NCBI GenBank assembly: GCA_027084135.1
Contig: JALWLO010000086.1
Span: 1-43,617, forward strand
Direction: 5' to 3'
Source: Campylobacterales bacterium
GTDB lineage: Bacteria; Campylobacterota; Campylobacteria; Campylobacterales; QNZT01
Length of the DNA stretch: 43,617 nt
In this document: piece by piece, positions 2,667-43,008 of the stretch
Layout of the letters: each line of letters begins with the position of its first letter
How positions within the stretch are numbered: position 1 is the first letter of the stretch
The notes under the pieces: model-generated
What the model was told of the DNA's origin: nothing
Seen by the model: only the letters and a program-made list of their open reading frames with translations
Databases searched by the model: none
Made by a program: the position numbers and the translations under genes

Positions 2667-2702
2667 TAATTACAAATATCATTAGTACTAAGGAGTATAA
2701 AA

Positions 2703-3251
2703 GTGGGACTTATAGATATGTTGATAAATAGCGGCGGCGGTGCGCTTTTAAATCAGGTGCAAAACCATACAGGGCTTGATAAAGATAAAACGGAAGACCT
2801 TTTAAAGACTCTCGGTTCAGCGATGCTAGGACAAGTTAAAGGTAGAGTAGAGAGTGATAGACACGACTCGACTGAGCTTGAAGATCTTATCAAAGATAGC
2901 AGATATGCAAATATGTTAGATAATCCTCATGAGCATCTAAATGATGAGAGGATGAGAGATAGAGGAAATGATCTTTTAAGACATATAACGGGAAACAAAG
3001 AGACTTCAAGAGAGATCGCTTCACAAGTCGGCAATCAAATAGGCATAGATCCCTCTATCATCAAGTCTCTTTTGCCGATGCTTGCTCCGCTTATTATCGG
3101 TACACTCGGTAAGGGTATGATGGGCGGCGGATCCGGTGCGGCTCCATCTTCAGAGGATAGCGGCGGTTTGCTTTCAAGTCTGCTTGATTTTGACAATGAC
3201 GGAAGTGTGATGGATGATATCGCCGGTATGGCGATGAAATATTTGATGTAG
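2703..3251 (+). CDS. DUF937 family protein
   Basis: This 182-aa protein begins with GTG, preceded by a strong AAGGAG site. It reads as a DUF937 protein: an N-terminal LLNQVQNHTGL segment, a helical middle, and a C-terminal hydrophobic run LLPMLAPLIIGTLGKGMMGGG. The last part carries DFDNDGSVMDDIAG, a D-x-D-x-D-G calcium-loop-like motif seen at the end of several DUF937 proteins. The biochemical function of the family is unknown to me. No signal peptide is obvious. The next gene starts about 8 bp after the stop codon, so the two are almost certainly co-transcribed and translationally coupled, which suggests the DUF937 protein and the AAA+ ATPase act in one process. Confidence 0.75.
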   Translation: MGLIDMLINSGGGALLNQVQNHTGLDKDKTEDLLKTLGSAMLGQVKGRVESDRHDSTELEDLIKDSRYANMLDNPHEHLNDERMRDRGNDLLRHITGNKETSREIASQVGNQIGIDPSIIKSLLPMLAPLIIGTLGKGMMGGGSGAAPSSEDSGGLLSSLLDFDNDGSVMDDIAGMAMKYLM

Positions 3252-3259
3252 GAGAATTG

Positions 3260-5002
3260 TTGGAGTATTTGATAGACTTTTTAGAGAGCAAAGATATCAC
3301 ATTATCAAAAATCTTCCCGGAGCTTAAATGCTCTAAGGAGGAGGCTCTCCTGCTTAGATTTATCGTTCAAAAACATCTAAAAGGCGAAGCCGAGACCATC
3401 GTTCATAGACTTTTAAACGAGTATGAAAACTCCCAAAATAGTGCATCTTTTGAGTATATCAAGAGACTTCCCCAACTCAAAAATTTGCTTGATCTAGGCT
3501 GGATAGTACAGAGTGACTACGCTATCACAAAGCTTGGTGAGCTTTCCAGTCTAGAGCTTGTAAATACAACCGTTACACTAAGTTCATCTATGATCAAGCT
3601 TTTGGAGGAGGGGAGGTTTGAGTCACCGCTCCCGGAACGCAAACCCTATAATGACAATCTAGAGTATCTCGAAGATCAATTTAAAAGGGTAGAGCTTTAT
3701 CATAAGATTAGTACGATTAGGCACAACTACACAGATAAATCTCTCGGTATAGATAGACTCTCAAAGCGATTGGAGGAGCTTGAAAAGAGGATCGATGAGA
3801 GACTTGAGATATCCTCTATAGAGCTACCTGTAGAGGATCTTTTTGAGGAGTATGAGTTAAATGAAAAGGAGAGGGTGATCTTTCTAGCACTTCTGAAAGA
3901 GGAGTATAGAAGCAACGAGATGGAGAGCTTAAGAGAGATGAATACCCTCATCAATCTCATCAGCCAAAACGACTATGAAAAGATCAAGTATCGTGCTCTC
4001 TTAGAGGATAGCTCTACCTTGATAGAAAATGAGATCATCGACTATGATGAGATACTCACGAGTTTCGGCGGGGTGACGAGAAGCTTCTTTATCACCGAAG
4101 AGTTTTTGCAACCTATCATCTACCCGCACAAAAGTAAAAAACCTACCAAGTTAAAGCTTGAGCATCTGGTAGAGGAGCAGGAGATCTTTGAACTGGTCAA
4201 ACCCAAAACGACACTTGATGATGTTGTACTGCATCCAAAAACAAAAGAGCTACTTAGTACCATACTTAAGCAGATGGATAAAAAGGTAGCCAAACTACTC
4301 TCTCAATGGGGTATCAAGAGCTCCAAAAAAGGAATAGAGGCAAAGCTTATCTTTTACGGATCTCCCGGAACTGGAAAAACGATGACGGCTCTATCGTTTG
4401 CCAAGACACTAAAGAGAGAGGTGCTCAGCTTCGACTGCTCCAAAATCCTCTCGATGTATGTCGGTGAGAGTGAAAAGAATGTACGGAAGATATTTGACTC
4501 CTATAAGGAGCTTGTCAAAAAGAGTAAAACCCAACCGATCCTTTTGCTAAATGAGGCGGATCAGTTTCTAAGTAGTAGAACTTCGGGAGCCGCAAGTGGA
4601 AGCGACAAGATGCATAACCAGATGCAAAATATCTTCTTAGAGCAGATAGAGCAGTTTGAGGGTATCTTGATAGCCACGACCAATCTTCTTGAAAATATCG
4701 ATCCCGCCTTTTCGAGAAGGTTTGACTATAAGATAGAGTTTGCTAAACCGAACTTTGCTCAAAGAGTAGAGCTTTGGAAAAAGATGTTGCCTAAAAATGC
4801 AAAATATAGCGATGACTTTGATGTAGAGCGTTTAGCGAAGCATGAGTTAAGCGGCGGTCAGATCAAAGTGGTGATAAAAAATACGGCTTTAAGCGTAGCG
4901 GTAAAAGTGTTACCAATCTTCACAAATGAAGATTTTCTCAAGGCTATTGCAAGAGAGAAAAGCGGCTCGTTCGGTGATGAGAAGATAGTGGGTTTTGTGT
5001 AG
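3260..5002 (+). CDS. AAA+ ATPase with N-terminal helical region
   Basis: A protein of about 580 aa whose C-terminal half is a single AAA+ module. Walker A is GSPGTGKT (near nt 4360-4385), Walker B is ILLLNEAD (near 4530-4560, with Asn where most AAA+ proteins have Asp), followed by a sensor-1 region ATTN and an arginine-finger region FSRRFD. The N-terminal 300 residues are rich in Leu, Glu and Lys and look helical or partly coiled-coil. The start is uncertain: TTG codons at 3257 and 3260 are both possible, and GGAG at 3251-3254 is better spaced for 3260. The stop codon TAG (5000-5002) lies inside a copy of the palindrome TAGTACTA. Substrates cannot be told from sequence; the class remodels or unfolds protein complexes. 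The gene pairs with the DUF937 gene upstream. Confidence 0.8.
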   Translation: MEYLIDFLESKDITLSKIFPELKCSKEEALLLRFIVQKHLKGEAETIVHRLLNEYENSQNSASFEYIKRLPQLKNLLDLGWIVQSDYAITKLGELSSLELVNTTVTLSSSMIKLLEEGRFESPLPERKPYNDNLEYLEDQFKRVELYHKISTIRHNYTDKSLGIDRLSKRLEELEKRIDERLEISSIELPVEDLFEEYELNEKERVIFLALLKEEYRSNEMESLREMNTLINLISQNDYEKIKYRALLEDSSTLIENEIIDYDEILTSFGGVTRSFFITEEFLQPIIYPHKSKKPTKLKLEHLVEEQEIFELVKPKTTLDDVVLHPKTKELLSTILKQMDKKVAKLLSQWGIKSSKKGIEAKLIFYGSPGTGKTMTALSFAKTLKREVLSFDCSKILSMYVGESEKNVRKIFDSYKELVKKSKTQPILLLNEADQFLSSRTSGAASGSDKMHNQMQNIFLEQIEQFEGILIATTNLLENIDPAFSRRFDYKIEFAKPNFAQRVELWKKMLPKNAKYSDDFDVERLAKHELSGGQIKVVIKNTALSVAVKVLPIFTNEDFLKAIAREKSGSFGDEKIVGFV

Positions 5003-5235
5003 TACTAATGAAAAAATCCCTAAATATCGTTTTTTTGTAAACCTCTTTTATATTTTATAGCTGTATACAAGCTATTTAAAATTTCTCAATTTTTCATGTT
5101 CTCTATTTGTGTTACAAATATACACATAACAATCTTTTTTGCTTTTAATCTAGTATAGATTTTAGTAATTTTATTGTACAATTTCATTTACTAACTATTA
5201 TATTTTGTAATATTAATAAAAAATAAGGATAACAC
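5003..5235 (+). promoter_or_regulatory. Leader/promoter region of the nuo operon
   Basis: This 233-bp AT-rich stretch has no gene. It holds an inverted repeat ATAGCT-GTATACA-AGCTAT at 5057-5075, which could be a weak terminator stem for the AAA+ gene or an operator. Several -10-like hexamers occur (TACAAT at 5177-5182 and TATATT-like sequence near 5196-5205), but no single promoter stands out. AAGGAT at 5225-5230 is the ribosome binding site of nuoA. Confidence 0.45.
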
Positions 5236-8157: not shown

Positions 8158-8394
8158 ATGGAGAGATATGATTTGCGAAAACTAAAGGGTGACAAGCTCT
8201 ATGATCGAATGAAAGAGATTATGGATAAAGAGGCAAAGCCATCTGAAGTAATTATCTTCATGTTTGAAGTGGGAGACTTTACTCCCGTGCATAAATCTAT
8301 GGAAGTGATGAAAGCCGAAGGTCATGAACTGATGAACTCTATCAAGTTCAATGAAGTGGATTGGACTTTGGTAGTGAAAAGGAAAGCCTCTTGA
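8158..8394 (+). CDS. Small NuoE-replacement subunit (HP1264/Cj1575c-like)
   Basis: A 78-aa protein in the position of nuoE. It lacks the thioredoxin fold length and the four cysteines that bind cluster N1a in NuoE; in fact it has no cysteine. In Campylobacter and Helicobacter the nuoE and nuoF positions hold small unrelated genes (HP1264/HP1265, Cj1575c/Cj1574c), and this protein matches the first of that pair in size and place. I infer that it is an accessory part of the electron-input module. GGGGAGAG precedes ATG 8158. Its stop TGA overlaps the TTG start of the next gene. Confidence 0.75.
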   Translation: MERYDLRKLKGDKLYDRMKEIMDKEAKPSEVIIFMFEVGDFTPVHKSMEVMKAEGHELMNSIKFNEVDWTLVVKRKAS

Positions 8395-10391: not shown

Positions 10392-10392
10392 T

Positions 10393-12627: not shown

Positions 12628-14942
12628 GTGAGATTACAGTAGAGATAAACGGACAGAAGTGTAAAGCTAAAGAGGGTGAGTTTCTCTTAAATATCGCAAG
12701 GCGTGAGGGGATATTTATCCCTGCTATCTGTTATCAAACACAGTGTTCTCCTACGCTTGCTTGTCGTCTTTGTATCGTCGATGCGGATGACAAAAGAGTC
12801 TATGCCTGTAATGCAAAAGCAAAAGATGGGATGGTCGTTAGTACTAACAGCGAAGAGATAGCCAAAGAGCGAAAAGCGATCATGCAAGTATATGATGTAA
12901 ACCATCCACTTCAATGCGGCGTATGTGATCAAAGTGGAGAGTGTGAACTCCAAAACTATACGCTCTATATGGCAGTTGATAAGCAGGAGTATGCGATACC
13001 TGATACCTTTAGACCTATTAGGGATTGGGGTCCTATCAAATATGATGCGGGACTCTGTATCGTATGTGAGAAGTGTATCACTATCTGTAAAGATATGATC
13101 GGCGATGCGGTACTAAAGACTGTTCCAAGAGGAGGAGAGCCACTACCGAAAGATCTCAAAGAGCATATGCCAAAAGATGCGTACGCGATGTGGAATAAAC
13201 TTCAAAAATCGATCATCGGTACCGTCAATGAAGATAACTCGCTTGAGTGTCAAGAGTGCGGTGAGTGTATAGCGGTTTGTCCGGTAGGTGCGCTGGTTAG
13301 CAGTGATTTCCAATATAGCGCAAACGCATGGGAACTGACAAAAATACCGGCATCAAATCCACACTCAAGTGACTGTTCACTTATGTACTATGAGACGAAA
13401 AAGCTTGGTAGAGAAAATAAGATCTATAGAGTGACAAATGATGCTCACTATGTTTCGCTTCCGGGAGCGGCGCGATTTGGATATGATTTTGAAAATAGAG
13501 TTCCGTCTAAAGATAAGGCGATGTTTGAGAAGGCGGTAGAGTTCTTGAAAAATGAAGCCGATACTATCAAATTTTCGAGCTTCATAACAAATGAGGAGGC
13601 TCTCATCCTGCAAAAAATGAAAGAGAAACTTGGGGTAAAACTCGTTAACGAAGATGCTTATAACTATCAACAGTTTCTCAAAGCATACGGCAAGACAAGC
13701 GGAACTTCACTCTATAGCGGCGATCTCACTAGCATAAAAAGATCGAACTTTATCATCTCCGTCGGTGGACATCTAAGATATGACTCCCCTGTTGTCGGTT
13801 TTGCAGTGAATAATGCCCTTACGATGAACAAAGGGGCACTTTTATACTTCCATCCGGTTGGTGATAAGGTGGTTGAGAAATTTGCAAAAAATGTCGTAAC
13901 CATCGAGCATGAGATAGCATCCGAAGAGCATGTGCTTGCATACATACTCAAAACATTTAATGAAATCGCACTAAATGCTGAAGAGCCGAAAGTAGAAAAA
14001 TTACCGAAAGAGATCGCGGATATCGTTTCAAAATATGATACAGAGAGCTTAAATCTACCGGAAGATTTAAATCTCGAGAAACTGTTAGCGAAAAAAGATC
14101 GCTTCTCATTAGTACTAGGAGAAGATCTATACAGCCACCCGAAAGCTACCAATATCGCAAAACTAGCCGGATTGATAGAGAGATATACAGAGTTTAGTGT
14201 GACGATCGTCCCAAGCAAAACGAACACGCTTGGAGTTGCGCTGATATGTGACCTCGATAAAGATGAGGGTAAAAAGGTGTTTGGCTATAACGAAGAGGGT
14301 GATTTTGTGATGAGTTCTCTTGGGGACGGTGATTTGGATGCACCCGCACTCAATCAGCAAGAGGGGACATTTACCTCAATCAACAAAAAGGTAGTCCCAA
14401 CCAATGTGGCGATAGAGTATAGCGGGTATATACTCAATGATCTTGCCAATGCGCTAGGCTTAGATAAAAAACTAACGATTGATTATACCCCTGAACTTCC
14501 TAGAAAGAGCGGCTATCAGATGGCGGAGTTTGATATGCTTCCAAACTTCTACAACAATGCCGGAGATGAGATAAGAGGCTATGACTTGAGAGTAAAAAAA
14601 GTGAAGGTTGATGAGAGTTTAGAGGATATCTCTAAGGTAGAGAGTATCAAAAACCCTCTCTATCTCTCAAACCCTATCAATCAATTTAGCCCTTGGACCA
14701 ATAAAGCACATCAGTTAAAAGATGAGGGTGGTCTATATGTAAGTAGCGAATATTTGGAAAAGAGCGGTTTGAGTGAAGGGAGTGAGGTAGAGGTAAACGG
14801 CTTGAAACTGAAAGTCAAGCTTGACAAGCAGTTAAAGGGTGATATCGCTTATATCCCTACATTTGATAAAAATATCGACTATAAAACAATCTTTGCGAAC
14901 GGTTATAGATTTGCCGAAGCAACTATAAGAGAGGTGAAATGA
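12624..14942 (+). CDS. nuoG: NADH-quinone oxidoreductase subunit G, second copy with an extra cluster
   Basis: A 772-aa paralog of the upstream nuoG; long stretches match (for example LGVALICDLDK and ALNQQEGTFT). It has the [2Fe-2S] ligands (Cys36, 47, 50, 62), the N5 set (His94, Cys98, 101, 107), and two full ferredoxin motifs: CIVCEKCITIC (145-155) and CQECGECIAVC (209-219). It can therefore bind two [4Fe-4S] clusters where the first copy binds one. About 50 residues separate the two motifs. The added cluster resembles the arrangement of [FeFe]-hydrogenase-type and formate-dehydrogenase-associated NuoG-like proteins. It overlaps nuoH by ATGA. A copy of TTAGTACTAA lies at 12838-12847 and another partial copy at 14110. 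Confidence 0.92.
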   Translation: MSEITVEINGQKCKAKEGEFLLNIARREGIFIPAICYQTQCSPTLACRLCIVDADDKRVYACNAKAKDGMVVSTNSEEIAKERKAIMQVYDVNHPLQCGVCDQSGECELQNYTLYMAVDKQEYAIPDTFRPIRDWGPIKYDAGLCIVCEKCITICKDMIGDAVLKTVPRGGEPLPKDLKEHMPKDAYAMWNKLQKSIIGTVNEDNSLECQECGECIAVCPVGALVSSDFQYSANAWELTKIPASNPHSSDCSLMYYETKKLGRENKIYRVTNDAHYVSLPGAARFGYDFENRVPSKDKAMFEKAVEFLKNEADTIKFSSFITNEEALILQKMKEKLGVKLVNEDAYNYQQFLKAYGKTSGTSLYSGDLTSIKRSNFIISVGGHLRYDSPVVGFAVNNALTMNKGALLYFHPVGDKVVEKFAKNVVTIEHEIASEEHVLAYILKTFNEIALNAEEPKVEKLPKEIADIVSKYDTESLNLPEDLNLEKLLAKKDRFSLVLGEDLYSHPKATNIAKLAGLIERYTEFSVTIVPSKTNTLGVALICDLDKDEGKKVFGYNEEGDFVMSSLGDGDLDAPALNQQEGTFTSINKKVVPTNVAIEYSGYILNDLANALGLDKKLTIDYTPELPRKSGYQMAEFDMLPNFYNNAGDEIRGYDLRVKKVKVDESLEDISKVESIKNPLYLSNPINQFSPWTNKAHQLKDEGGLYVSSEYLEKSGLSEGSEVEVNGLKLKVKLDKQLKGDIAYIPTFDKNIDYKTIFANGYRFAEATIREVK

Positions 14943-15934
14943 TGAGTGAAAGTGCATATATCATAGAGACGGTTATTAAGATTATCGTTATCTTGACGGT
15001 TTTTTCTGCTCTTGCGGGTATTACGACATATTTTGAGAGAAAAGTTCTTGCATTTATGCAACGAAGACTGGGACCTATGCATGTGGGACCTTACGGTATC
15101 TTACAGGTGTTGGCTGACGGTATCAAGCTCTTTACAAAAGAGGATATCGTACCGCAGAACGCTGTAAAGCCTATATTTATGATAGCGCCTGTTATCGCTG
15201 CGGCAAGTGCCTTCATAGCGATGTCGGCAATACCGTTTTTGCCTGAATTTAGGTTGCCGTTTACCGATTATGTCGTTCATCCGATCGTTGCGGATGTGAA
15301 TGTAGGGCTTCTCTTTGTCGTGAGTGTCATGGCGGTAGGCATGTATGCGCCGCTCCTTGGTGGTATGGCATCAGCAAACAAGTGGTCACTTTTAGGAGCA
15401 GCGAGGACGGTCATACAGATGTTATCGTTTGAAGTGGTAACAGGCTTGGCGCTTATCTCTCCGCTCATGATGGTCGGCTCACTTTCGCTTATCGATATTA
15501 ACAATTATCAAGCGGAGCATGGATGGATCGTTTGGGCGCAACCGGTTGCATTTATCTTGTATTTGATTTCGGGTTATGCGGAGACGAACAGAACGCCGTT
15601 TGATCTTCTTGAGCATGAAGCTGAGGTTGTAACCGGTTATGCGACAGAGTATAGCGGTATGAGATGGGGACTTTTTGCGATAGGTGAGTATGCAAATATG
15701 TTTACGGTGGCATTTATCGCATCACTTGTCTTTTTAGGCGGATTTAATCCGATGGGATTTATTCCGGGAGGATTGGCGATCATACTTAAAGTCTCTCTTT
15801 TAGTCTTCCTCTTTTTATGGGTAAGGGCAGCTTGGCCACATGTTAGACCGGATCAGTTGATGTGGCTATGTTGGAAAGTATTGATGCCGCTTGCAGTTGT
15901 AAATATTTTGATTACCGGTATAGTACTAATATAG
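14939..15934 (+). CDS. nuoH: NADH-quinone oxidoreductase subunit H
   Basis: A 331-aa polytopic membrane subunit linking the quinone site to the proton-pumping arm. About eight hydrophobic helices are visible. The motifs ERKVLAFMQRRLGP near the N-terminus and AETNRTPFDLLEHEAE followed by EYSGMRWG are diagnostic. ATG codons at 14939 and 14942 are both possible and both overlap or abut the nuoG stop. The last codons ATA-GTA-CTA-ATA-TAG contain a TAGTACTA copy at 15921-15928. Confidence 0.96.
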   Translation: MMSESAYIIETVIKIIVILTVFSALAGITTYFERKVLAFMQRRLGPMHVGPYGILQVLADGIKLFTKEDIVPQNAVKPIFMIAPVIAAASAFIAMSAIPFLPEFRLPFTDYVVHPIVADVNVGLLFVVSVMAVGMYAPLLGGMASANKWSLLGAARTVIQMLSFEVVTGLALISPLMMVGSLSLIDINNYQAEHGWIVWAQPVAFILYLISGYAETNRTPFDLLEHEAEVVTGYATEYSGMRWGLFAIGEYANMFTVAFIASLVFLGGFNPMGFIPGGLAIILKVSLLVFLFLWVRAAWPHVRPDQLMWLCWKVLMPLAVVNILITGIVLI

Positions 15935-17155: not shown

Positions 17156-17454
17156 TTACGCTAACGCACTACTTAGTACTATCGGGGATACTGTTTGTAA
17201 TCGGCTTGGTTGGTGTTATAAGAAGAAAAAATCTACTGATGCTCTTCTTTTCAACCGAAATTATGTTAAACGCTGTCAATGTAGGTCTTGCGGCAATATC
17301 AAAATTTCACCAAGATCTTACAGGTCAAATTTTTGCATTTTTTATCATAGCGGTTGCAGCAAGTGAGGTTGCCGTAGGTCTTGGTCTCTTAGTACTATGG
17401 TACAAAAGAAACGGCAGCATTGATCTTGAAACACTACAAAAGATGAAGGGGTAG
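17152..17454 (+). CDS. nuoK: NADH-quinone oxidoreductase subunit K
   Basis: A 100-aa, three-helix subunit homologous to MrpC antiporter subunits. The conserved membrane glutamates are visible in the segments FSTEIMLNAVN and ASEVAVGLGL. Two TAGTACTA copies are inside the gene (17174 and 17390), both read as Leu-Val-Leu. Confidence 0.95.
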   Translation: MITLTHYLVLSGILFVIGLVGVIRRKNLLMLFFSTEIMLNAVNVGLAAISKFHQDLTGQIFAFFIIAVAASEVAVGLGLLVLWYKRNGSIDLETLQKMKG

Positions 17455-25529: not shown

Positions 25530-28500
25530 TCAAAAACTTTTGGTCAATTGATCTAAAGATTCGTTATCAAGCTTCATTCTCATTTTGAGATAGGCGCCCT
25601 CGGCGCTATTGAGATAGGTTGAGAGATCTTTATCATAGTAGCCTTTGAAGTTGTATCCTACACCTAAGTAGAGATTTTTAAAGAAGCTATATCCTAGATA
25701 TCCGCCGTAACTCTCCTGCATATCCCCGCTCTCCCATATATGCAGGAGTGAGCCGTTGACTCCTATTTCGATTTTTTTGCTTAAGTCATAGATCGCTTCA
25801 AGACCGATAGCGTCAACCGTAGTACTAAACTCATTATTATCGATTTTTTCTCTATTTATCTTTATGGCATAGTGGCTGGATATTTGACTTTTGTTTGAGG
25901 GATTTATGACTCCCTTTAGAGCAGCAATAACTGTTTTGCTATCACTATATCTATCTTTACGGTGATCTATTTTTAGTTGAGAGAGTAGGGTATATGCACT
26001 ATCGCCTCTATAGGCGATACTAAATTTTGCTTCACCGTCATAAGCTCTAGTACTATTTATCTCATTACTGATATTTTCTCTGATACCCATAGCAAAGCCC
26101 AAGTCTCTATTTAGCTCAGTATATGCACCGAAGTTGATGTTCAACTTATCGCTTTGAAACCCATCTTTATACTCAAGCATCGTATTAAAGATCCATTTTT
26201 TGTGTTTGTAGTTTGCTCCGATGGAGTATGAGGTGTAATCTTTTTGTATATTATTTGAGTCTAAAGATTTTTGATTCTCTAAAGCGGCATTTATCGAGAG
26301 CTTTTTATTGACTCTGTAGTATTGGTTCAGACCTAAAAATCCAAAGAGTCTATTTTCATCGTTTTCAAGCTTTTGTGTGATACCGCTTTGTATCGTAGCG
26401 CCTCTCCATGCCATACCTTTGAGACCGATTTTTGATGCTCTCTCTTTTTCGGTTTTCCCTTCTAACATCTCATGGTTGACAAAAAGTTCCAAAGTGTTGG
26501 TCACTCTATAGGATAACTCTCCAAAAACTCTATCTTTTTGATAATTACTTCGCTCTGCGATACTCTTTTCATAGGCCAATGAGAGACCTACTTTTCCGTG
26601 AAAAAATCTCTTTTGAAGTGCGGATATGATCTGAGAGAGATCGCTCTCTTTTTTGATAGTGTCTTTTGCAAATCTATACCCAGCTATCGCCATCCAGCCA
26701 CCCCTATTAAAGATTAGCTTGCTCTCAAGAGTATCTCGTTTACGATTATCTTTTAGACCTTTTTCACCATGGTAGGATAGGGCAATTAAAAAGTTGTCAA
26801 AGTAGCTTATCGTACTGTCGATACCGTATCTATTTGACCCTGCGAGAGAGTTATTTTGAAAGCCGAGTCCAAAGTCTCTCTCTTGGTGCCTAATATAGGC
26901 TTTCGTATGAACGAATTTATTGAAGTGCTCCATCTCTACTAGATAGGCATTTGCACTGGAAGATGCTTTTTTTGTTGTAGCATATTCCCCGTTTAGTACC
27001 AAGTTTTTGAGAAGATTGATCTTAAAATCTGCGCCATAAAGGGTGTCATACTCGTCATCTGCATTCTCTTGAGCGATAGTACTAACCCCTACCTCTGCTC
27101 TATCTTTTGCAAATTTAATCGTAGCTCTTCCGCCCGCAACGACCCTATCGCGCTTCTCATCACCCAACTCATACTCTACGACTATCGTTTGAGGATTTCC
27201 GTACCTATCCCTTGAAGCTATCGGCTCTTTAAAATAGATCAAACCGTTTTGATAGTCGATCGAGTAGTCATATATTTCTGCATAACCTCTCTTATCTAGT
27301 ACCAATTCACCCCTATATCTATCTCTAATCTCAATATAAACCTTTTCACTTCCCGGATATATCGAGTCTGTTTTGATTTTGTAGGGACCGCTTGTACCGT
27401 CAGGCACTATCTCCACTCTTTTAAATCCGCTTGAAGTGTTTGAGGCAAAGGCAGTATACTCGAAGCTATCTCCGTGATATTCTGACTTGATACCAGTAAC
27501 TCTTCTGCTATATCTGCTTAGTTCAAGTTTATCAAGTCCCGTTTCAAAGTCACCGAACATCGCATAAAACTGCTCCTTTTCTATCTTGAGATAGAGTTTT
27601 TTGCTTGTCGGTGCTTCGTTTTGGTCGATAGCGTTATCACCGTATATGGTAAACTGCCTACTATTTTGCGCATCTTTGTCGATAAACTCTTTCTCTTTTT
27701 TACTATTTCTACCGCTTTTATAGGCGATGGTTAAAAGTGTATCTTTGCCTATTGTACCTTTTGCAAAGAGTGAAACTTTACCGTCAGTGAGTAGCTCTTT
27801 GGAGTTTACTTTTTTAAGATCTTTTTTGATCTCTTGATAACCTATACTCCCTTCTGCAAAGCCCACTAACAACCACTCTCGATTTTTAGGTGTTAACCAT
27901 GTTGTAAGGTATTGATTTGGTTCTTGAAACTCAAAATGAAGTTTAACTTCACCTGTAACGGTTGTCGGCATAAGCTCTATATACGCTATACCGTCATCTA
28001 ATATAATGAACCGATTCCTCTCACCTCTCTCTAATAGCGGATCTTCTTCGTAAAGTTTTGATTTAGCCATAGAAATATAGGGATTTGAAAGCTCAAATGT
28101 TCCGGTTACTCCTCTCCTTAAAGGGTGTCCACTTGCATCATACATCTTTACGGCTATTACCGGTGGATTTTTACCGTCAGCTATGAGATATGATTTTTCA
28201 GGTACGATCACCGCTTTTACTGGTGAGGTTGAAAAGTGCACCTTTCTTTCAAATCTCCCTATCTCTTTGCCGCTTTTATCTTTTACTACCATCTCCAAAA
28301 TATTATCGCCATCTACTATATCGATACCGCGATATTTGGAGATACTCCACTTTTTATCTTTGCTATCGACATATCCGTCAAAATTTAGCATATTTACTTT
28401 TTTGCCGTTTATCAGTAGTTCTACCTTGTCATCCTTTTGATGTAAAAAAGCTACTTTGATTGCCGGCATAGGCGGTATGAAATCCTCTTTCGGCCATAAA

Positions 28501-30104
28501 AAGCCTCTCTTTTTTTTAAATGTATCAAAGGAGTTAGTACTAAAGATTGGCATAGTGATCTTTTTGGGCTTTGGTATTTTGTAACTCATATCACTTCTCA
28601 GAGCAGAGCTGATAGTATTCTCTCTAAGACAGAAGTGTATATCTCCTATATGCGCTGACGAGGTATCGACAAATCTACTAATAGCACTTCCGTTACTTCT
28701 TGCATTTGCTCTACATTCATAGGCGATATATTTACCCTCGATAGAAGTAGGATCTATGGAGACGACATGCAGGGATGGATCGATATCGCTAAAGTGAAAT
28801 CTTCCATATTTGTCACTGATAGCATATCGTCCGCTATCTAGATATATCTTGACACCTTCGACCCCTTTGCTGCTATTGCCGTCAAGCAAAATTTTTCCGG
28901 TTATGGTAGAGCTATCGTCAAACTCTCCTACTCTCTTCACCTTTACCGTAACGCTATTGGAGTACTGTTTATCGTAGAAGAGTAGGCTCTTATTTATGAT
29001 ATACCTTGGCTTTTTTGCCTCATTTCTAATGACAAAGGATATGCTTCTTTTTTGATGTGCTTTTAGTGATAGATTAGTACTAAAGCTGTTATGCGCTTTA
29101 TCTATCGTAAAACCATCAAATCTTTTGTCATCCAGATAAAAGCTGCCCTTTATATATTTTGCACCTCTAGATAGGGTATTTACCAGCTTAGCGGTAGATA
29201 TGTCCATGTTGCTACTATTTTCTAGTACTATCTCGACTTTAAAAAATTCGCCGATACCAACCTCCTCTTTTGAACTATCCATATCTATCCAAACTTTTGG
29301 AGGAGTAGAATTGTTGTTTTGAAGTGTTGTCACCTTTTTAGGTATTTGTGTGATAAAAGCTCTGGCGTGAATCTTTGAAGAAATAGCTCTGCTTTTTTTA
29401 TTAGTACTAGATTTATACAAAAAGGCATCTAACTCATCTCCCTCTTTGACAAAAAGCTTGCCGTCAAATTTGCTTTTGCATCGGGTTGTAGTATTGATAT
29501 ACCCTACATATTTAGTACTATTTCCATCTCTTTTGAGTGTGATGACCTCTTTATCTTCACCACTCTTTATGCAAAACTTTAGACTCTTTTTATCCGCGTA
29601 TGGATCATCATATACTAAAAAGATCGGCTCATCTTTTTTATAAATCAGGCACTTTGCTATCGGAATCTTTTTCCCTATATCGATCTCTTCGCCGGTAGGC
29701 AGTTTGAGAGGGGGTAACTGTTTAAAGCTAGTTTTTGAAGGCTTGTCTAGAGTGAGAAAGTCTATTGCATCGATCTCAACAAAAAAGTTAGAAGATGTAT
29801 CATATCTATAAAAAAGAAGTAAGGGTTCAGGCTTGATAGATGTTTGATTGATATCATTTTGAGTCCTTACTACTATTTTAACATAGTTTGAGATGGCTTG
29901 ATTAACACTATTGCTATTGACTACTTGTGATAAGTTTTGTTGGGTTGAACCTTCTGTAGTATGAGCTTCCCTACTATCTTCATCATCAACAATAAAGGAT
30001 GCTTTAGCGGGAGTAAAAACAATATCTTTAAAATTTACAGAAAAAAGTGAAGTAGGTAGAAAAAATGTATAGAGCAGGAAGAGAAAAATCCATCCTACTC
30101 TCAT
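25530..30104 (-). CDS. Large outer-membrane beta-barrel protein with DUF11 and carboxypeptidase-regulatory-like domains
   Basis: A 1524-aa protein with a signal peptide (about residues 1-22, ending LFSVN). Visible modules in order are: an N-terminal Cys-containing beta region; a DUF11-like domain at about 270-400 (VEIVLENSSNMDISTAKLVN); a Cna-B/carboxypeptidase-regulatory-like domain at about 405-455 (GVEGVKIYLDSGRYAISD then GRFHFSD); Ig-like segments at about 540-740; and, from about 880 to the end, alternating amphipathic strands with Tyr/Arg-rich turns, ending in Phe, as in outer-membrane barrels. This suggests a barrel anchor with a large soluble portion. It is the last gene of a four-gene minus-strand run encoding secreted DUF11-type proteins and may export, anchor or assemble them. 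GAGGA lies five bases before ATG 30104. The gene contains eight exact TAGTACTA copies, five of them between 28535 and 29520. No exact family name is known to me. Confidence 0.75.
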   Translation of the reverse strand: MRVGWIFLFLLYTFFLPTSLFSVNFKDIVFTPAKASFIVDDEDSREAHTTEGSTQQNLSQVVNSNSVNQAISNYVKIVVRTQNDINQTSIKPEPLLLFYRYDTSSNFFVEIDAIDFLTLDKPSKTSFKQLPPLKLPTGEEIDIGKKIPIAKCLIYKKDEPIFLVYDDPYADKKSLKFCIKSGEDKEVITLKRDGNSTKYVGYINTTTRCKSKFDGKLFVKEGDELDAFLYKSSTNKKSRAISSKIHARAFITQIPKKVTTLQNNNSTPPKVWIDMDSSKEEVGIGEFFKVEIVLENSSNMDISTAKLVNTLSRGAKYIKGSFYLDDKRFDGFTIDKAHNSFSTNLSLKAHQKRSISFVIRNEAKKPRYIINKSLLFYDKQYSNSVTVKVKRVGEFDDSSTITGKILLDGNSSKGVEGVKIYLDSGRYAISDKYGRFHFSDIDPSLHVVSIDPTSIEGKYIAYECRANARSNGSAISRFVDTSSAHIGDIHFCLRENTISSALRSDMSYKIPKPKKITMPIFSTNSFDTFKKKRGFLWPKEDFIPPMPAIKVAFLHQKDDKVELLINGKKVNMLNFDGYVDSKDKKWSISKYRGIDIVDGDNILEMVVKDKSGKEIGRFERKVHFSTSPVKAVIVPEKSYLIADGKNPPVIAVKMYDASGHPLRRGVTGTFELSNPYISMAKSKLYEEDPLLERGERNRFIILDDGIAYIELMPTTVTGEVKLHFEFQEPNQYLTTWLTPKNREWLLVGFAEGSIGYQEIKKDLKKVNSKELLTDGKVSLFAKGTIGKDTLLTIAYKSGRNSKKEKEFIDKDAQNSRQFTIYGDNAIDQNEAPTSKKLYLKIEKEQFYAMFGDFETGLDKLELSRYSRRVTGIKSEYHGDSFEYTAFASNTSSGFKRVEIVPDGTSGPYKIKTDSIYPGSEKVYIEIRDRYRGELVLDKRGYAEIYDYSIDYQNGLIYFKEPIASRDRYGNPQTIVVEYELGDEKRDRVVAGGRATIKFAKDRAEVGVSTIAQENADDEYDTLYGADFKINLLKNLVLNGEYATTKKASSSANAYLVEMEHFNKFVHTKAYIRHQERDFGLGFQNNSLAGSNRYGIDSTISYFDNFLIALSYHGEKGLKDNRKRDTLESKLIFNRGGWMAIAGYRFAKDTIKKESDLSQIISALQKRFFHGKVGLSLAYEKSIAERSNYQKDRVFGELSYRVTNTLELFVNHEMLEGKTEKERASKIGLKGMAWRGATIQSGITQKLENDENRLFGFLGLNQYYRVNKKLSINAALENQKSLDSNNIQKDYTSYSIGANYKHKKWIFNTMLEYKDGFQSDKLNINFGAYTELNRDLGFAMGIRENISNEINSTRAYDGEAKFSIAYRGDSAYTLLSQLKIDHRKDRYSDSKTVIAALKGVINPSNKSQISSHYAIKINREKIDNNEFSTTVDAIGLEAIYDLSKKIEIGVNGSLLHIWESGDMQESYGGYLGYSFFKNLYLGVGYNFKGYYDKDLSTYLNSAEGAYLKMRMKLDNESLDQLTKSF

Positions 30105-30119: not shown

Positions 30120-31202
30120 CTACTTAATTTTAGCTTTGATATATGCACACTCGGTAGTACCACCCGCAACTGTATCAAAGTCTATTTTTAATGTTCCTTG
30201 TGCATCAGGATCTTGACCGTTGGCTCCGTTAGCACCTGTTATTTCACTCTCATTCGTATTACAATCACAAATTCCAGTTCCGCTATACATTACAACACTC
30301 TGACCGGTTGTATCAAGGATATCTGGATCTAAAGTATCAGTAACAATGGCACCACTTGCTTCAGCTCCTCCCTCAGCATTTGTAACGATGTAGCAATATC
30401 TGATAGTTGCACCAGGAATCCTTTTTGGATTATTAGTACCGTTTACCGGATCGTCAATAACTATTGAGTCTTTAGAAACAGTTACGGTTGCAGTGACAAT
30501 CTTCCAAGCATCAGCACTGCTAAATTTACCATCATGTTCCGCATCTGCACTTCCTGCTCCGTCAGCAAATACGATTTGAACAGTTGCTTTGTCATCTGCT
30601 TGGTTAGCATTATCACTTGTTATCGCATTTCCTTGAGTTGAAGCTGTTCCGCCTTGAGCTACTTGAACTTCGAGGTCATAAACAGCAACATTATTATTAG
30701 CCGCATCAGCTGGCACATCCGCTACGATAAATACAGTCTTCTCTTGATCGGGTTCTAACTCATCGATATATGTTTGGGTATCTTTACTCTCATCATATAC
30801 CCCATCACCATCATCTACAAAAACTCTCACATTTGTTAAGTCATAGTTGTCATTAACTTGATTTTCTCCACTAAATACGGTAGTTGAAGCTGTTAAAGCA
30901 TTTAAATGAAAATCTTGTACAGTATTACCATCATTTCTAACTTTAAATGTTAACAAAACATTGGTTTGTCCCGGATTTGCCGTTACAGCTTGTGCATCAA
31001 CAGTAGTTACCGTCATATCCACTTTGTTATCCACTACATAAGTTTCAGTTGAAGTTGCTTCAGATGTTTGACCATTTACAGTAAATTGAAGAGTTGCTGT
31101 TGTATCAACTGAAGTTCCTGAAAGTGTACCTTGGGCAAAAGCACCAGTAGTACTAAGTCCAAGTAGTGTAGCAACTGCTAATTTTTTACTATGTTTAAAC
31201 AT
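30120..31202 (-). CDS. Secreted acidic DUF11-type surface protein
   Basis: A 360-aa secreted protein with a clear signal peptide (MFKHSKKLAVATLLGL, cleavage after AFA). The mature part is very acidic and rich in Thr, Asp, Asn, Ala and Val, with few Lys, which suits an abundant extracellular structural protein. The first half is paralogous to the 311-aa protein three genes upstream: LLTFKVRNDGNTVQDFHL matches LTFKVLNSGNGTDRFNL, and both continue into an Asp-rich loop (FVDDGDGVYDES here) and EPDQEKTVFIVADV. The C-terminal third is DUF11-like (IPGATIRYCYIVTN, then TDTLDP) with cysteine pairs GICDC and TECAY. It may be a surface-layer or fibre subunit; this is inference. GGGGG lies upstream of ATG 31202. 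Confidence 0.65.
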   Translation of the reverse strand: MFKHSKKLAVATLLGLSTTGAFAQGTLSGTSVDTTATLQFTVNGQTSEATSTETYVVDNKVDMTVTTVDAQAVTANPGQTNVLLTFKVRNDGNTVQDFHLNALTASTTVFSGENQVNDNYDLTNVRVFVDDGDGVYDESKDTQTYIDELEPDQEKTVFIVADVPADAANNNVAVYDLEVQVAQGGTASTQGNAITSDNANQADDKATVQIVFADGAGSADAEHDGKFSSADAWKIVTATVTVSKDSIVIDDPVNGTNNPKRIPGATIRYCYIVTNAEGGAEASGAIVTDTLDPDILDTTGQSVVMYSGTGICDCNTNESEITGANGANGQDPDAQGTLKIDFDTVAGGTTECAYIKAKIK

Positions 31203-32685: not shown

Positions 32686-32737
32686 TTTTAATATCGGTAA
32701 TTTATGAAATAATTTTAGTTGAATTGGAGTTTTAGTA

Positions 32738-33274
32738 CTAATGACAGTTAAGCGTTAATTTTGCAGATGTGTTATTGAAGTATGGAGGGTATTTCATCTT
32801 GACTCTAAATCTCTTAATCTCTCCCGGTTTTATATTTTTTGCGACTAAAAACTCCTCTTTGACGCTATTTGATTTATACTCTTTTTTATCCCCAAATATC
32901 GAATCCAAACCTCTTGGCTTAAAAAAAGAGTCTTTAGGTCTTCCCATCTTATAGACATTGTTTGTGAGCTTGACCTCTACCTTGCAGTAGCCAAGCTTAT
33001 AATCACCGGTATTTTTCAATTTACCGTTGAAGATGATACTCTCACTCATCAAATCTCTTCTATTGTCATAAGAGAGTAGTTTTGATTTTTTTGTAAACTT
33101 CTCCGCAGCAAAGAGCGCTATGATAGCTCCTAACAATACGACAAAAAATGATGAGATGATCATGATGATTCTATTTTTTGGATTTTTCTCTTTGAAGGAT
33201 AGTATTACTAAAATGATAAAGAGTAGGACAAAAAGTGCAACAACGATCCAGTGGATAGTAGTCATATAAAACAT
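32738..33274 (-). CDS. DUF2393-like membrane protein, second copy
   Basis: A 178-aa protein with two N-terminal hydrophobic helices (about residues 9-30 and 40-60) and a periplasmic or extracytoplasmic domain containing FNGKLKNTGDYKLGYC and a C-terminal TLNCH. It is a tandem paralog of the gene upstream ([21 protein letters not shown]). DUF2393 is a family I associate with Campylobacterota; its function is unknown. ATG 33274 overlaps the upstream stop as TGATG and has GGAG eight bases before it, so I prefer it to the GTG at 33283. The stop codon TAG (complement of 32738-32740) lies inside a TAGTACTA copy. Confidence 0.65.
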   Translation of the reverse strand: MFYMTTIHWIVVALFVLLFIILVILSFKEKNPKNRIIMIISSFFVVLLGAIIALFAAEKFTKKSKLLSYDNRRDLMSESIIFNGKLKNTGDYKLGYCKVEVKLTNNVYKMGRPKDSFFKPRGLDSIFGDKKEYKSNSVKEEFLVAKNIKPGEIKRFRVKMKYPPYFNNTSAKLTLNCH

Positions 33275-33804
33275 CAGTAACACTCCGCATGAAGAGTTGT
33301 ATTAAAATCCCTGCTATAATTGAAATGATCTATGACAATTTTAAACCCTTTTTTATCACCTTTACTTAAATTCTCTTCTAGGAAGATCGTCTTTTTTCTT
33401 AAAGGCTTTAATCTAAAAAGCATATTTTTATATTTGTTGCGAAATGTTTGAAATACGGTTGCGGAGATAAAACATCTTTGCAGCTTCACTTTTCCGCTAT
33501 TTTTGAGTTTTCCTGTGATGATGAGAGATTGTGCATAGTGCAGCTTTGTAATATTTGTATCGAGCAGTTCCACTTTTCTGACACTTTTATCTAAGAAGTA
33601 TTTGATTCCAAACGGTCCTGCGATTATGAGGATGAGCGTCAATAGTGTCATCCATATAGCGAGTTTCGGTTTTTTGCGTGCAAGTAGAACGATAAGTACT
33701 AAGATAATAGTGATCAAAAAAAGTAGCCACCCAAAAGCTACATAGTCATAGATCGTTAGAGAGTGAAGGTAGGTGAATAGCTTTAGCCTAATCTCCTCTA
33801 TCAC
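33274..33804 (-). CDS. DUF2393-like membrane protein, first copy
   Basis: A 176-aa protein with two hydrophobic helices (about 22-42 and 48-68), then a soluble domain with [16 protein letters not shown] and a terminal HAECY. One conserved Cys in the mid-domain and one near the end are shared with the neighbouring paralog and might pair. The start is GTG at 33804, overlapping hisIE by 17 bp. The overlap chain suggests co-expression with hisIE and the SPFH gene. Confidence 0.65.
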
Positions 33805-39529: not shown

Positions 39530-39536
39530 AACCCCT

Positions 39537-41900
39537 TTATAACTCTATCACTCTCTCAAACATCTCTTTGATTTCACTTTCATGTGAAATGAGAAATATC
39601 TCTCTATATCTCTCTTTGATCTTATGAAATGCTTCCATGATCTCATATCTTCGCTCCTCGTCTTGTGAGCCAAACACCTCATCAAACGCCAAAAAACCGA
39701 TACTTTTTCCTCCGCCAAGTTCACTCACGCTTCGTGATATGGCGATCCTTAGTACTAGGTTTGCCAAGTCGATCTCCCCGCCGCTAAACCTCTCTATCGG
39801 ATACTTTACCCCCTCGTCATAGATGTAGAAGTTAAACTCGCTATCCACCTCGATATGCTGATACTTTCCTCTTGTGATATCGGCAAACATACTGCTTGCG
39901 TAGGAGCTGATCCGCGGAGCGATATGAGCGTTTATGCGATCTTTAAAGCTTTGTAGATAGGCTTTAAGTTTTTCATAATCCGCCCTCTGGGCTATCTTGC
40001 TCTCCATATCCGCCCTCTGCTTTTTATCCCGCTCTATTGTATCCTCTATACTCTTTATCTCTCCCTTTAGTGCGGTAACTGTAGTACTAAGCTTGAGTAC
40101 TTCGCTATGGCTCTTCTCTATCATCTCTTTGAGTTTCTCATTCTCATCTTTTACGGCAAGATGCTCTTTTTCGTTATATTTGGACTCTTTGAGTTTGGCT
40201 TGGGCGCTCTTTTGTCGGCTCTCTAGCTCTTGGAGTCTTTTGGTAGCTGATTTTATCTCCGCCTCTACCTTGACTAACTCCTCTATCTTCCCCTTTATAC
40301 CCAAAAGCTCTCTATATCTTGGTTCCAACGCATCTCTCTCTTTTAGTACCGATTTATGTTCATTCTCATCATAGGTGATCTTCTCAAGCGCTTCTAACTC
40401 TCTTTTGTTTCTTTGTCCCTCATCCTCTACAGCTCGAAACTCTCTTATTTTAGTATTTAACTCCCTCTCTTTTGACTCTATCGTTTTGAGGATATATTGT
40501 GACTCTTGAAGGCTTTTTTGATTTTTTTCTATCTCTTTGCCACTTTCATCCCTCTTTAGTACTAAAGGTTCAAGCCGCTTTTGCGCGTTTGCTATTTGCG
40601 TCTGGGTGAGGGTGTTTATCTTTTGGTTGAGTGAGTCTATCACGCTGTCATACTCGTCAAGCAGTTTTCTAGTGCAGGTAGGGCACTCCGACTCTCTGCC
40701 TAGCTCTTGGATCTTTTTCATCTGACTTTTTGTATGAGCTATGACTCCTTCATCCTTTTTGATTTGTGACTGTAACTGCTCTATCTCTTGCTCTATCTTT
40801 TTCTGCTCCTGCTTGAGCTTCTCTATCTCTTTCTGTTTGCTTTCTATCTCTTTTGCGACACTACTCTTTTGGCTAATAAACTGTTCAAGCTCTTTGATTT
40901 CACGCTTTAGACTTTTGTATCTGCCTCTTAGAGCCTCCTGCTCCTTTTTGAGTCCCTCTTTTTTTTCGATTTTCAGTTTTTTCTCATTGAGAAGTTGGAG
41001 TTTTTTGTTTAGCGCTTCATATTGTTGCAGCAAGTTTTTTTCATTATCAAACCTTTTTGACAAATCGTGTAACTCTTTTTGTTTCGTACGAAGTTTTTCT
41101 ATGCTCTCTTTTTGGTCTATTACCCTAGTACTAGCGTTTTTTACCAAGTTTTCAAGGTGGAGTTTCTCCTCTTTGAGTTTTTGCCACCTCTCTAGTGTAG
41201 TTGCTATCTCTTTAGCACTTCTTTTTAACTGCTCTTCGTTATGTTTTAACTTTTCAAGTTTGGCTGTTTGAGTGACGAGAAGTTCGCTCTTCTCTTTTGC
41301 CTCCTTTTTGAGTCTATCTAACTCCTCCTCTCTCAAGAGTACGCCGGTTAGTGCCTCTATCTCTCTTCTTAGAGTCAGCATCTTCTCCTTTATCAGAGCT
41401 TCAACCCTATCTATCTTTTCAAGTCCGAGAAGCTCTCTCATCATCTTTTTTCGCTCATCTTGGTTTAGTGAACTAAGCGATGTCAGCTCTTTTTGAGAGG
41501 CAAATACCGTCTGCTTAAATGCCTGCTTATCCAGACCGACGAGAGAGGTGATGCTCTTTGTTACCTCACTTGAGCTGCTTGAGATAAGTTCATCTTTTGC
41601 ATCATATAGAGCCGCTTTTGCTGTGAGAGTTCTACCTCTAAACTCCCTTTTTACCCTATAATCCTTTCCCTCTATCTCAAACTTCAACTCCACTTCAACA
41701 GGGTCTTTCGGTGAGGCGCTTGAGTGTCTTATCAACTCTTTTGCCTTTGTTGTGCCGTAGAGTGCGAAAAATATCGCTTCAAAGATAGTCGATTTTCCGG
41801 AGCCGTTTCTGCCGAGTATGCCGGTTAGTCCTTCAGAAAATTCAAATCTTTTGCTTTTAAACTTTTTGAAGTTTGTTATTTCGAGACTAAGCAGTATCAC
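39537..41900 (-). CDS. sbcC: SbcC/Rad50-type DNA repair ATPase
   Basis: A 787-aa ABC-type SMC-like ATPase that works with SbcD to open and trim DNA hairpins and ends. Walker A is GRNGSGKS near the N-terminus, the two coiled-coil arms flank a zinc hook CPTC (near nt 40680), and the C-terminal lobe has the signature FSGGEIDLANL and Walker B FLAFDEVFGS. GTG 41900 (VILLSLEI) is chosen because GAGGAG lies eight bases upstream; the frame is open to another GTG at 41921. It overlaps sbcD by 14 bp. It is smaller than E. coli SbcC (about 1050 aa), with shorter arms. Confidence 0.92.
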   Translation of the reverse strand: MILLSLEITNFKKFKSKRFEFSEGLTGILGRNGSGKSTIFEAIFFALYGTTKAKELIRHSSASPKDPVEVELKFEIEGKDYRVKREFRGRTLTAKAALYDAKDELISSSSSEVTKSITSLVGLDKQAFKQTVFASQKELTSLSSLNQDERKKMMRELLGLEKIDRVEALIKEKMLTLRREIEALTGVLLREEELDRLKKEAKEKSELLVTQTAKLEKLKHNEEQLKRSAKEIATTLERWQKLKEEKLHLENLVKNASTRVIDQKESIEKLRTKQKELHDLSKRFDNEKNLLQQYEALNKKLQLLNEKKLKIEKKEGLKKEQEALRGRYKSLKREIKELEQFISQKSSVAKEIESKQKEIEKLKQEQKKIEQEIEQLQSQIKKDEGVIAHTKSQMKKIQELGRESECPTCTRKLLDEYDSVIDSLNQKINTLTQTQIANAQKRLEPLVLKRDESGKEIEKNQKSLQESQYILKTIESKERELNTKIREFRAVEDEGQRNKRELEALEKITYDENEHKSVLKERDALEPRYRELLGIKGKIEELVKVEAEIKSATKRLQELESRQKSAQAKLKESKYNEKEHLAVKDENEKLKEMIEKSHSEVLKLSTTVTALKGEIKSIEDTIERDKKQRADMESKIAQRADYEKLKAYLQSFKDRINAHIAPRISSYASSMFADITRGKYQHIEVDSEFNFYIYDEGVKYPIERFSGGEIDLANLVLRIAISRSVSELGGGKSIGFLAFDEVFGSQDEERRYEIMEAFHKIKERYREIFLISHESEIKEMFERVIEL

Positions 41901-43008
41901 CGAAATGCTCCTCGACTTCACTAAACAGCTCTTTGGCTTTGGTACTCAACCTCTCCAACTCCGACTTATCCTCGATACTCTCTTGAAGATGTGAGAGAAA
42001 GTACTCCTCAAGTGAAACAGGTTCAAGCACTTGGCTTATCTCCTGATGCTTCGTATCTTCAAACTCTCTTCTTATCTTCACACTCATCGCACCGTCAAAA
42101 AGTGCTTTGACGGATTGGTTGGTTATATCGATGGAGCTTGAGGGGGTGAGATTGTAGAGCCGTACCTCAACCATCGCATCTTTTATGCCAGATCTATCGA
42201 GTTTCTCTATCTCACTCTCAAAATCTTTCGCATCTATCTCAAACTCCAAACTCTTTCTTAGCTCTATAGTATGGAAAGTTACCTCTACATTACCGTTTAG
42301 TACTAACTCTATAAAGCCTTTATTTTCCCTCTTATCTTTAGAGCTTGTCCTCTCGGTAGAGCCGCTGTAATAGACATTTTCCCTACCGCCCACACTGCCA
42401 AATCCGTGCCAATGCCCAAGCGCTACATAATCCATCTCATCAAAGAGCCCCTCTCTCTCCTTTGGATAGACCCATTCGCCAAACTCTCCCATCAAGTAAC
42501 TAGCCCCTACACAACAGTGCATCATAAGGATATTTTTTTTGGATTTGTCTATGGAGTTTTCTATCTTCTCTAGTTCATCGGGGATAAGCCTCTCATCGTG
42601 GATAAACGGCAGAGCATGAAAGATAATATCATCAAACTCTACCTTTTCATAGTGCTGTTGATAGACGGCATGAACATTATCAAGTGTCTCAAGAGCGCTA
42701 AGTATCGGCAGGGAGCTACCGCTTCTTGGGGTCGAGTGGTTTCCGGCGATGATGATGAAAGGAATATCATTATCTTCAAGTCGTTTTATCTGTTTTAGAG
42801 CGCTTGTGATGGCGCGGTTTGACGGTGAAGCTCTGTGAAAGAGATCGCCCGTGTGTATCACAAAGTCCGGTTTTATCTCAAGTATCTTATCGATAGAGTC
42901 GCTAAAAGCTTTGTAAAAGTCTGCTTCCCTCTGATTTACACCGTTTTCATCGATAACATCAAGGTCGCTAAATCCCAAATGGGTATCTGAAATGTGTATG
43001 ATCTTCAC
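41887..43008 (-). CDS. sbcD: SbcD/Mre11-type exonuclease
   Basis: A 373-aa metallophosphoesterase nuclease. The phosphodiesterase motifs are all visible: SDTHLG (8-12), GDLFH (about 54-58), GNHSTPR, MMHCC and GHWHGFG. These bind two metal ions in the Mre11/SbcD nuclease, which forms a complex with SbcC. It starts with GTG at 43008 behind AGGAA. The C-terminal part is the capping and SbcC-binding region. Confidence 0.93.
   Translation of the reverse strand: MKIIHISDTHLGFSDLDVIDENGVNQREADFYKAFSDSIDKILEIKPDFVIHTGDLFHRASPSNRAITSALKQIKRLEDNDIPFIIIAGNHSTPRSGSSLPILSALETLDNVHAVYQQHYEKVEFDDIIFHALPFIHDERLIPDELEKIENSIDKSKKNILMMHCCVGASYLMGEFGEWVYPKEREGLFDEMDYVALGHWHGFGSVGGRENVYYSGSTERTSSKDKRENKGFIELVLNGNVEVTFHTIELRKSLEFEIDAKDFESEIEKLDRSGIKDAMVEVRLYNLTPSSSIDITNQSVKALFDGAMSVKIRREFEDTKHQEISQVLEPVSLEEYFLSHLQESIEDKSELERLSTKAKELFSEVEEHFGDTA

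What the first reader, a model, noticed from the sequence alone, without database searches (positions are those of the whole stretch)
2683..42305. TAGTACTA is a strongly over-represented palindrome in this genome
I count 26 exact copies of this 8-bp palindrome by eye, against about one or two expected from a composition near 40% GC. It occurs on both sides of the window, in genes of every function and both orientations. This resembles the HIP1 palindrome of cyanobacteria in behaviour but with an unrelated sequence. It could be a methyltransferase or DNA-binding site, or a mark for replication, repair or uptake. I know of no description of such a motif in Campylobacterota.
Basis: seen in the sequence. 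Interest (0 to 1): 0.8.

Follow-up and report, generated by a model that had tools for sequence, protein, structure and literature searches.

The report
Lineage-specific genome-wide palindromes in Campylobacterales
This bacterium's genome carries about 1,200 copies of one 8-letter DNA palindrome (some 22 times more than expected), and its relatives carry other palindromes in the same role, which points to a self-recognition or DNA-binding mark of a kind not yet described in this group.

Summary
There are 26 exact TAGTACTA in the window (0.66 expected) and 1,188 in the held 1.98-Mb genome. No other of 399 genomes of the order exceeds 125; a complete congener has 25. It is not a codon effect.

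Other lineages of the order carry different enriched octamers, mostly around a CATG or GTAC core: TGGTACCA (a congener), ATCATGAT (up to 1,901 copies), TTCATGAA, and TACATGTA (nearly all of the Sulfurospirillum family, up to 1,727, and patchily in another family).

In Sulfurospirillum single sites are actively kept (57% exact between species, 8-15% for neighbouring octamers). The motif extends as a tapering palindrome (CTTTACATGTAAAG), most clearly in intergenic DNA, as expected for a symmetric DNA-binding protein. CATG dialects tend to co-occur with an orphan D12 adenine methyltransferase, imperfectly. The window's genome has no candidate GTAC methyltransferase.

Best reading: HIP1/uptake-sequence-like reiterated sites spread by a drive process, probably self-DNA recognition in transformation. 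The reader protein, methylation and competence are all untested. Vsr-type mutation bias is disfavoured.

The parts
2683..2690 (.). TAGTACTA (in TTAGTACTAA), intergenic
5000..5007 (.). TAGTACTA; its TAG is the stop codon of the AAA-ATPase ORF
12839..12846 (.). TAGTACTA in nuoG-like ORF, frame xxT AGT ACT Axx
14110..14117 (.). TAGTACTA in nuoG-like ORF, frame xTA GTA CTA
15921..15928 (.). TAGTACTA in nuoH
17174..17181 (.). TAGTACTA in nuoK
17390..17397 (.). TAGTACTA in nuoK
19006..19013 (.). TAGTACTA in nuoL
21726..21733 (.). TAGTACTA in nuoN
23330..23337 (.). TAGTACTA (in CTTAGTACTAAG) in TPR-protein ORF
23384..23391 (.). TAGTACTA in TPR-protein ORF
25820..25827 (.). TAGTACTA in 1524-aa surface-protein ORF
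26048..26055 (.). TAGTACTA in 1524-aa surface-protein ORF
27077..27084 (.). TAGTACTA in 1524-aa surface-protein ORF
28535..28542 (.). TAGTACTA in 1524-aa surface-protein ORF
29075..29082 (.). TAGTACTA in 1524-aa surface-protein ORF
29223..29230 (.). TAGTACTA in 1524-aa surface-protein ORF
29402..29409 (.). TAGTACTA in 1524-aa surface-protein ORF
29513..29520 (.). TAGTACTA in 1524-aa surface-protein ORF
31148..31155 (.). TAGTACTA in 360-aa ORF
32733..32740 (.). TAGTACTA at the end of the 32738-33283 ORF, between genes
39750..39757 (.). TAGTACTA in SbcC/Rad50-like ORF
40082..40089 (.). TAGTACTA in SbcC/Rad50-like ORF
40557..40564 (.). TAGTACTA in SbcC/Rad50-like ORF
41126..41133 (.). TAGTACTA in SbcC/Rad50-like ORF
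42298..42305 (.). TAGTACTA in SbcD/Mre11-like ORF

Best explanation
TAGTACTA is a genome-wide reiterated recognition site: the dialect of this species in a set of lineage-specific palindromes carried by many Campylobacterales. Shown: strong enrichment, strictness of the octamer, DNA-level rather than codon-level origin, other dialects in relatives, and, for the TACATGTA dialect, maintenance of individual sites and a tapering symmetric consensus. Inferred: a symmetric DNA-binding protein reads the site, and a process acting on DNA carrying it spreads and maintains copies. The most likely such process is self-DNA recognition during natural transformation, so that fragments with the site are taken up or integrated more often. 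In CATG-dialect lineages an orphan adenine methyltransferase may mark the core, comparable to the methylated RAATTY required for uptake in Campylobacter jejuni. Changes of reader or writer specificity would produce the dialects.
For: Enrichment: 1,188 copies, next genome 125. Density 0.6-0.7/kb. Exact copies (214) outnumber all 24 one-mismatch variants together (about 180). AGT ACT for Ser-Thr 94 against 23 expected, GTA CTA for Val-Leu 140 against 22. Flank T at -1 in 63% of own sites and 77% of intergenic ones; in Sulfurospirillum CTTTACATGTAAAG with left and right halves independent, in the main reading frames, strongest in intergenic DNA. Sulfurospirillum sites exact in a partner species 313/553 against 8-15% for octamers 9-27 bp away; partner mismatches bimodal (0:313, 1:37, 2:86). 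Intergenic enrichment 2.4x own. Dialects TGGTACCA 31 vs 1.2, ATCATGAT 1,901/1,288/685, TACATGTA up to 1,727, TTCATGAA. Orphan D12 association: 6/9 vs 4/29 genomes in one family (p = 0.0045), 6/6 vs 5/15 in the window's family (p = 0.012). C. jejuni takes up only DNA methylated at RAATTY by CtsM (PMC10046745).
Against: Competence was not tested in any of these organisms. Classical uptake sequences are not palindromic. D12 is missing in several strongly TACATGTA-rich genomes (G190 1,201 copies; G106 1,124; G138 611) and present in some without the motif. The association tests ignore phylogeny. No GTAC methyltransferase was found in the window's genome. In probable Campylobacteraceae the AAATTT enrichment disappears at Markov order 3-4, so the CtsM parallel is not matched by a clear HIP there. 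A chromosome-organising or repair protein would leave the same marks.
Confidence: 0.4

Rival explanations
1. HIP by methylation: an orphan methyltransferase methylates the core (CATG or GTAC), and methyl-directed repair or selection for methylated sites accumulates the palindrome as a by-product, as Elhai proposed for HIP1.
For: The core is constant within dialect groups while outer bases vary; orphan ~325-337-aa D12 methyltransferases sit among housekeeping genes in CATG-dialect genomes and go statistically with TACATGTA in two families. Alternate HIPs with matching methyltransferases are known in cyanobacteria (PMC4390886).
Against: No GTAC-type methyltransferase in the held genome (about 92% complete): PF01555 hits are a TdeIII-type R-M enzyme and a Mod-type protein, PF02086 and PF00145 none, PF07669 only a type I HsdM and small non-candidates. 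A methyltransferase does not explain a graded 12-14-bp consensus. Several TACATGTA-rich genomes lack D12.
Confidence: 0.22
2. Binding sites of a nucleoid, segregation, replication or recombination protein, kept by selection for chromosome function.
For: A symmetric graded consensus with independent halves and strong conservation of individual sites.
Against: Replacement of more than 1,000 sites by a different palindrome between genera, and absence in a complete congener, is hard without a drive. Spacing is close to random (CV 1.04). A palindrome cannot be polar like Chi or KOPS.
Confidence: 0.23
3. Mutational or repair bias (Vsr-like repair of deaminated 5-methylcytosine) that creates the word without function.
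For: Such bias is known to enrich words, e.g. around CCWGG in E. coli (own knowledge).
Against: The predicted deamination neighbour TAATACTA/TAGTATTA is not depleted (10 vs 5.6); no C5-methyltransferase in the genome; flanks to 14 bp and site-specific conservation.
Confidence: 0.07
4. Codon or dipeptide usage, or a spread repeat family, misread as a palindrome.
For: 84% of copies lie in ORFs.
Against: Two different frames in about equal numbers, 4-6x over synonymous expectation, intergenic enrichment, no sequence similarity beyond a few bases either side.
Confidence: 0.01

Closest known systems
HIP1 and alternate HIPs of cyanobacteria (PMC4390886)
   Same: Strict 8-bp palindrome, hundreds to thousands of copies, dispersed mostly in genes, replaced by other palindromes in some relatives, link to orphan methyltransferases.
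   Different: GTAC or CATG core instead of GATC; A+T-rich; graded 12-14-bp extension in some dialects; intergenic enrichment; the largest single-base deviation in the own motif is at position 2, not 1; no methyltransferase for the core found here.
DNA uptake sequences (DUS/USS) of Neisseriaceae and Pasteurellaceae (PMC1939737)
   Same: Comparable copy numbers, exact copies far above one-mismatch forms, graded flanks, lineage dialects; some close pairs that could form hairpins.
   Different: Palindromic, so no orientation; a sharper drop at one mismatch; no evidence here on competence or biased uptake.
CtsM / methylated RAATTY of Campylobacter jejuni (PMC10046745)
   Same: Same order; palindromic methylated site that decides which DNA is taken up.
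   Different: Degenerate hexamer; three sampled genomes of the probable Campylobacteraceae show only weak AAATTT excess.
NlaIII/HpyI-type (CATG) D12 adenine methyltransferases
   Same: D12 family by Pfam, about 330 aa, in genomes with CATG-core dialects.
   Different: Orphan in all but one case inspected; CATG specificity is from memory and untested; absent from the window's genome.

Membership tests
Highly iterated palindrome (HIP) class | Octamer palindrome strongly over-represented genome-wide | tested here: met
   1,188 copies; 214 vs 8.2 at order 3 in 300.8 kb
Highly iterated palindrome (HIP) class | Dispersed through genes of all kinds | tested here: met
   151 of 180 sites in ORFs, two frames, gap CV 1.04
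Highly iterated palindrome (HIP) class | Sequence GCGATCGC or GATC-core derivative | tested here: not met
   GTAC core
Highly iterated palindrome (HIP) class | Methyltransferase for the core present in the genome | tested here: inconclusive
   None found in PF01555, PF02086, PF00145, PF07669; PF05063 search had no positive control; assembly about 92% complete
Highly iterated palindrome (HIP) class | Single deviations concentrated at first and last base | tested here: not met
   Own motif: position 2 highest (2.96x) vs position 1 (1.96x); position 1 is highest in four of the five other sets, not in ATCATGAT
DNA uptake sequence (DUS/USS) | Hundreds to thousands of copies per genome, exact copies dominant over one-mismatch forms | tested here: met
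   214 exact vs about 180 for all 24 one-mismatch forms
DNA uptake sequence (DUS/USS) | Core with graded flanking preferences | tested here: met
   Flank bits 0.39 at -1 own; 0.94, 0.45, 0.44 in Sulfurospirillum
DNA uptake sequence (DUS/USS) | Non-palindromic, oriented | tested here: not met
   Perfect palindrome
DNA uptake sequence (DUS/USS) | Preferred uptake by naturally competent cells | not testable with these tools
   Needs an uptake experiment
Restriction site of a resident R-M system | Site avoided in the genome | tested here: not met
   Site enriched 22-25x, whereas GGCC and ACGT are depleted
Chi / KOPS polar motif | Strand-polar orientation | tested here: not met
   A palindrome has no polarity

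The most novel reading that the evidence does not exclude
Campylobacterales use palindromic, dialect-forming self-recognition sites, read by a symmetric DNA-binding protein and in some lineages core-methylated by an orphan methyltransferase, as uptake or recombination marks that spread by molecular drive and switch sequence between genera.
Probability: 0.3. Interest if true: 0.85.

Novelty: new variant of a known kind. Interest (0 to 1): 0.68.

Why it matters
The function of HIP1 is an open question. Natural losses, switches and methyltransferase presence/absence pairs give a comparative system in which the roles of methylation, uptake and chromosome binding can be separated. Species-specific marks also bear on barriers to gene flow between vent bacteria.

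Tried and rejected
Chance or codon usage: rejected. TdeIII R-M or type III Mod as the writer: the endonuclease next to the C19 methyltransferase is RE_TdeIII (E 7e-86), a family I associate with GGNCC from memory, and Mod enzymes have asymmetric sites. Vsr-type repair: the expected neighbour is not depleted. RAATTY parallel in probable Campylobacteraceae: weak, vanishes at higher Markov order. The MT-A70 search had no positive control. Other octamers seen in single short loci (CTATATAG in L025, GCAATTGC in L075) do not survive multiple testing.
Full report
OBSERVATION. The 26 copies are exact and at the stated places (0.66 expected from shuffles). The genome in which the window lies (G000, 1.98 Mb, 144 contigs, 92% complete) has 1,188. 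In 300.8 kb of it that I could read there are 214, against 8.2 from an order-3 Markov model. Higher-order models absorb the motif into their own parameters. The octamer is strict: in 261 kb AAGTACTT 6, CAGTACTG 1, GAGTACTC 2 are not enriched, and all 24 one-mismatch forms together are fewer than the exact form.

NOT CODING. In ORFs the motif uses two frames about equally (xTA GTA CTA 71; xxT AGT ACT Axx 80). The two codon pairs are 4-6 times over expectation given the dipeptides and synonymous usage. Intergenic DNA is enriched 2.4-fold (1.7-fold with a stricter ORF rule, from the counts).

DISTRIBUTION. Of 399 genomes in the order only G000 has more than 125 TAGTACTA; its 99%-complete congener G013 has 25. 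The 'control' word of that search, ATCATGAT, proved to be the enriched word of another genus of the same family (1,901 and 1,288 copies) and of one genome of a second family (685). De novo scans of 20-kb samples and of named nuoD loci gave TGGTACCA in the other congener G012 (31 vs 1.2 in 70 kb), TTCATGAA/TCATGA in genera g4 and g5, and TACATGTA in Sulfurospirillum loci. Whole-genome counts of TACATGTA exceed 1,000 in many genomes of family f20 and reach 1,727; in f16 they are patchy even within one genus (221-848 in four species, mostly under 120 in the rest). f20/g25 is Sulfurospirillum: contig lengths of G160 and G150 equal those of S. cavolei UCH003 and S. diekertiae JPD-1. The genome G056, in the same family, has only 28 TACATGTA but 685 ATCATGAT. 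Names for f16, f10 and others are my inference from genome size and GC.

MOTIF ANATOMY. Conditioned on the octamer, own sites prefer T at -1 (63%; 77% in intergenic DNA). In f20 the consensus is CTTTACATGTAAAG, in g3 GCTATCATGATAGC. The preferences taper outward, are symmetric, and left and right are statistically independent. They hold in the main reading frames and are strongest between genes. This is what a symmetric DNA-binding protein would leave; a methyltransferase target would be expected to end sharply.

SITE MAINTENANCE. Between Sulfurospirillum relatives aligned over the nuo region, 313 of 553 site comparisons are exact in the partner, against 8-15% for octamers 9-27 bp away. The mismatch distribution is bimodal: 0:313, 1:37, 2:86, 3:65. 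These are pairwise counts over twelve loci and not independent. The window's own sites are almost never present in relatives (1 of 56), so the TAGTACTA dialect probably arose on this lineage.

METHYLTRANSFERASES. In the window's genome: a TdeIII-type R-M pair, a Mod-type methyltransferase next to a TrlF-like gene, a type I HsdM; no D12, no C5. None is a candidate for a GTAC palindrome. In relatives a D12 subfamily of about 325-337 aa with motif LYLDPPYN sits among housekeeping genes without an endonuclease, except one HNH-like neighbour in G015. It is present in 6 of 6 CATG-dialect genomes of the window's family (in G010 only as pieces) and 5 of 15 others (p = 0.012), in 6 of 9 TACATGTA-bearing f16 genomes and 4 of 29 others (p = 0.0045), and in Sulfurospirillum genomes with it the copy number is higher (p = 0.011). 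Exceptions exist in both directions, and these tests do not correct for shared ancestry. A published 5-methylcytosine survey of Sulfurimonas denitrificans lists CGCG, CCNGG, GATC and CCGG but no CATG motif (PMC8112702). This argues against m5C at the core and leaves m6A open.

INTERPRETATION. The evidence supports a class of reiterated, protein-read palindromes under site-level maintenance with rapid dialect turnover. HIP1 of cyanobacteria is the nearest described kind, including its replacement by alternate palindromes (PMC4390886); uptake sequences are the nearest in copy number and graded flanks (PMC1939737). In the same order, C. jejuni imports only DNA methylated at a palindrome (PMC10046745). 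I therefore favour a self-recognition mark in transformation, at 0.4. Methylation-only HIP, chromosome-organising sites and mutational bias follow. No step from reader to function was shown here.

Noticed in passing
L180 (G034, family f14), whole 18-kb locus: GCGATCGC, the cyanobacterial HIP1 word itself, occurs 13 times against 2.65 expected in a GC-rich Campylobacterales genome.
   Followed up: no
own genome sample (261 kb): ACGT (12 copies, 0.02 of expectation) and GGCC (41 copies, 0.09) are nearly absent, an avoidance signature of restriction; a TdeIII-type R-M pair is at G000:C19:17579-19920.
   Followed up: partly
L124:17463, L126:15298, L140:5901; L125:8870/8883: Overlapping or 12-13-bp-spaced double sites (TTAGTACTAGTACTAA; TTAGTACTAACGGTTAGTACTAA) that could form hairpins.
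   Followed up: no
L122 (G015), 805-2496: The D12 methyltransferase of the orphan subfamily lies next to an HNH-like ORF, possibly a complete R-M pair.
   Followed up: no
G000:C105 (L125) 1-2473: Mod-type methyltransferase beside a TrlF-like PHP/ATPase gene, a possible defence pair.
   Followed up: no
L176, L297, L298 (family f10): AAATTT and TAAATTTA about 2-fold or more in excess in three small AT-rich genomes, perhaps related to RAATTY methylation; the AAATTT excess vanishes at Markov order 3-4.
   Followed up: partly
window 8361-14942: Two nuoG-like subunits in tandem in the complex I operon, preceded by a NADPH-oxidoreductase-like fusion in the nuoF place.
   Followed up: no
window 25530-30104: 1,524-aa secreted repeat/surface-type ORF with 8 of the 26 sites.
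   Followed up: no
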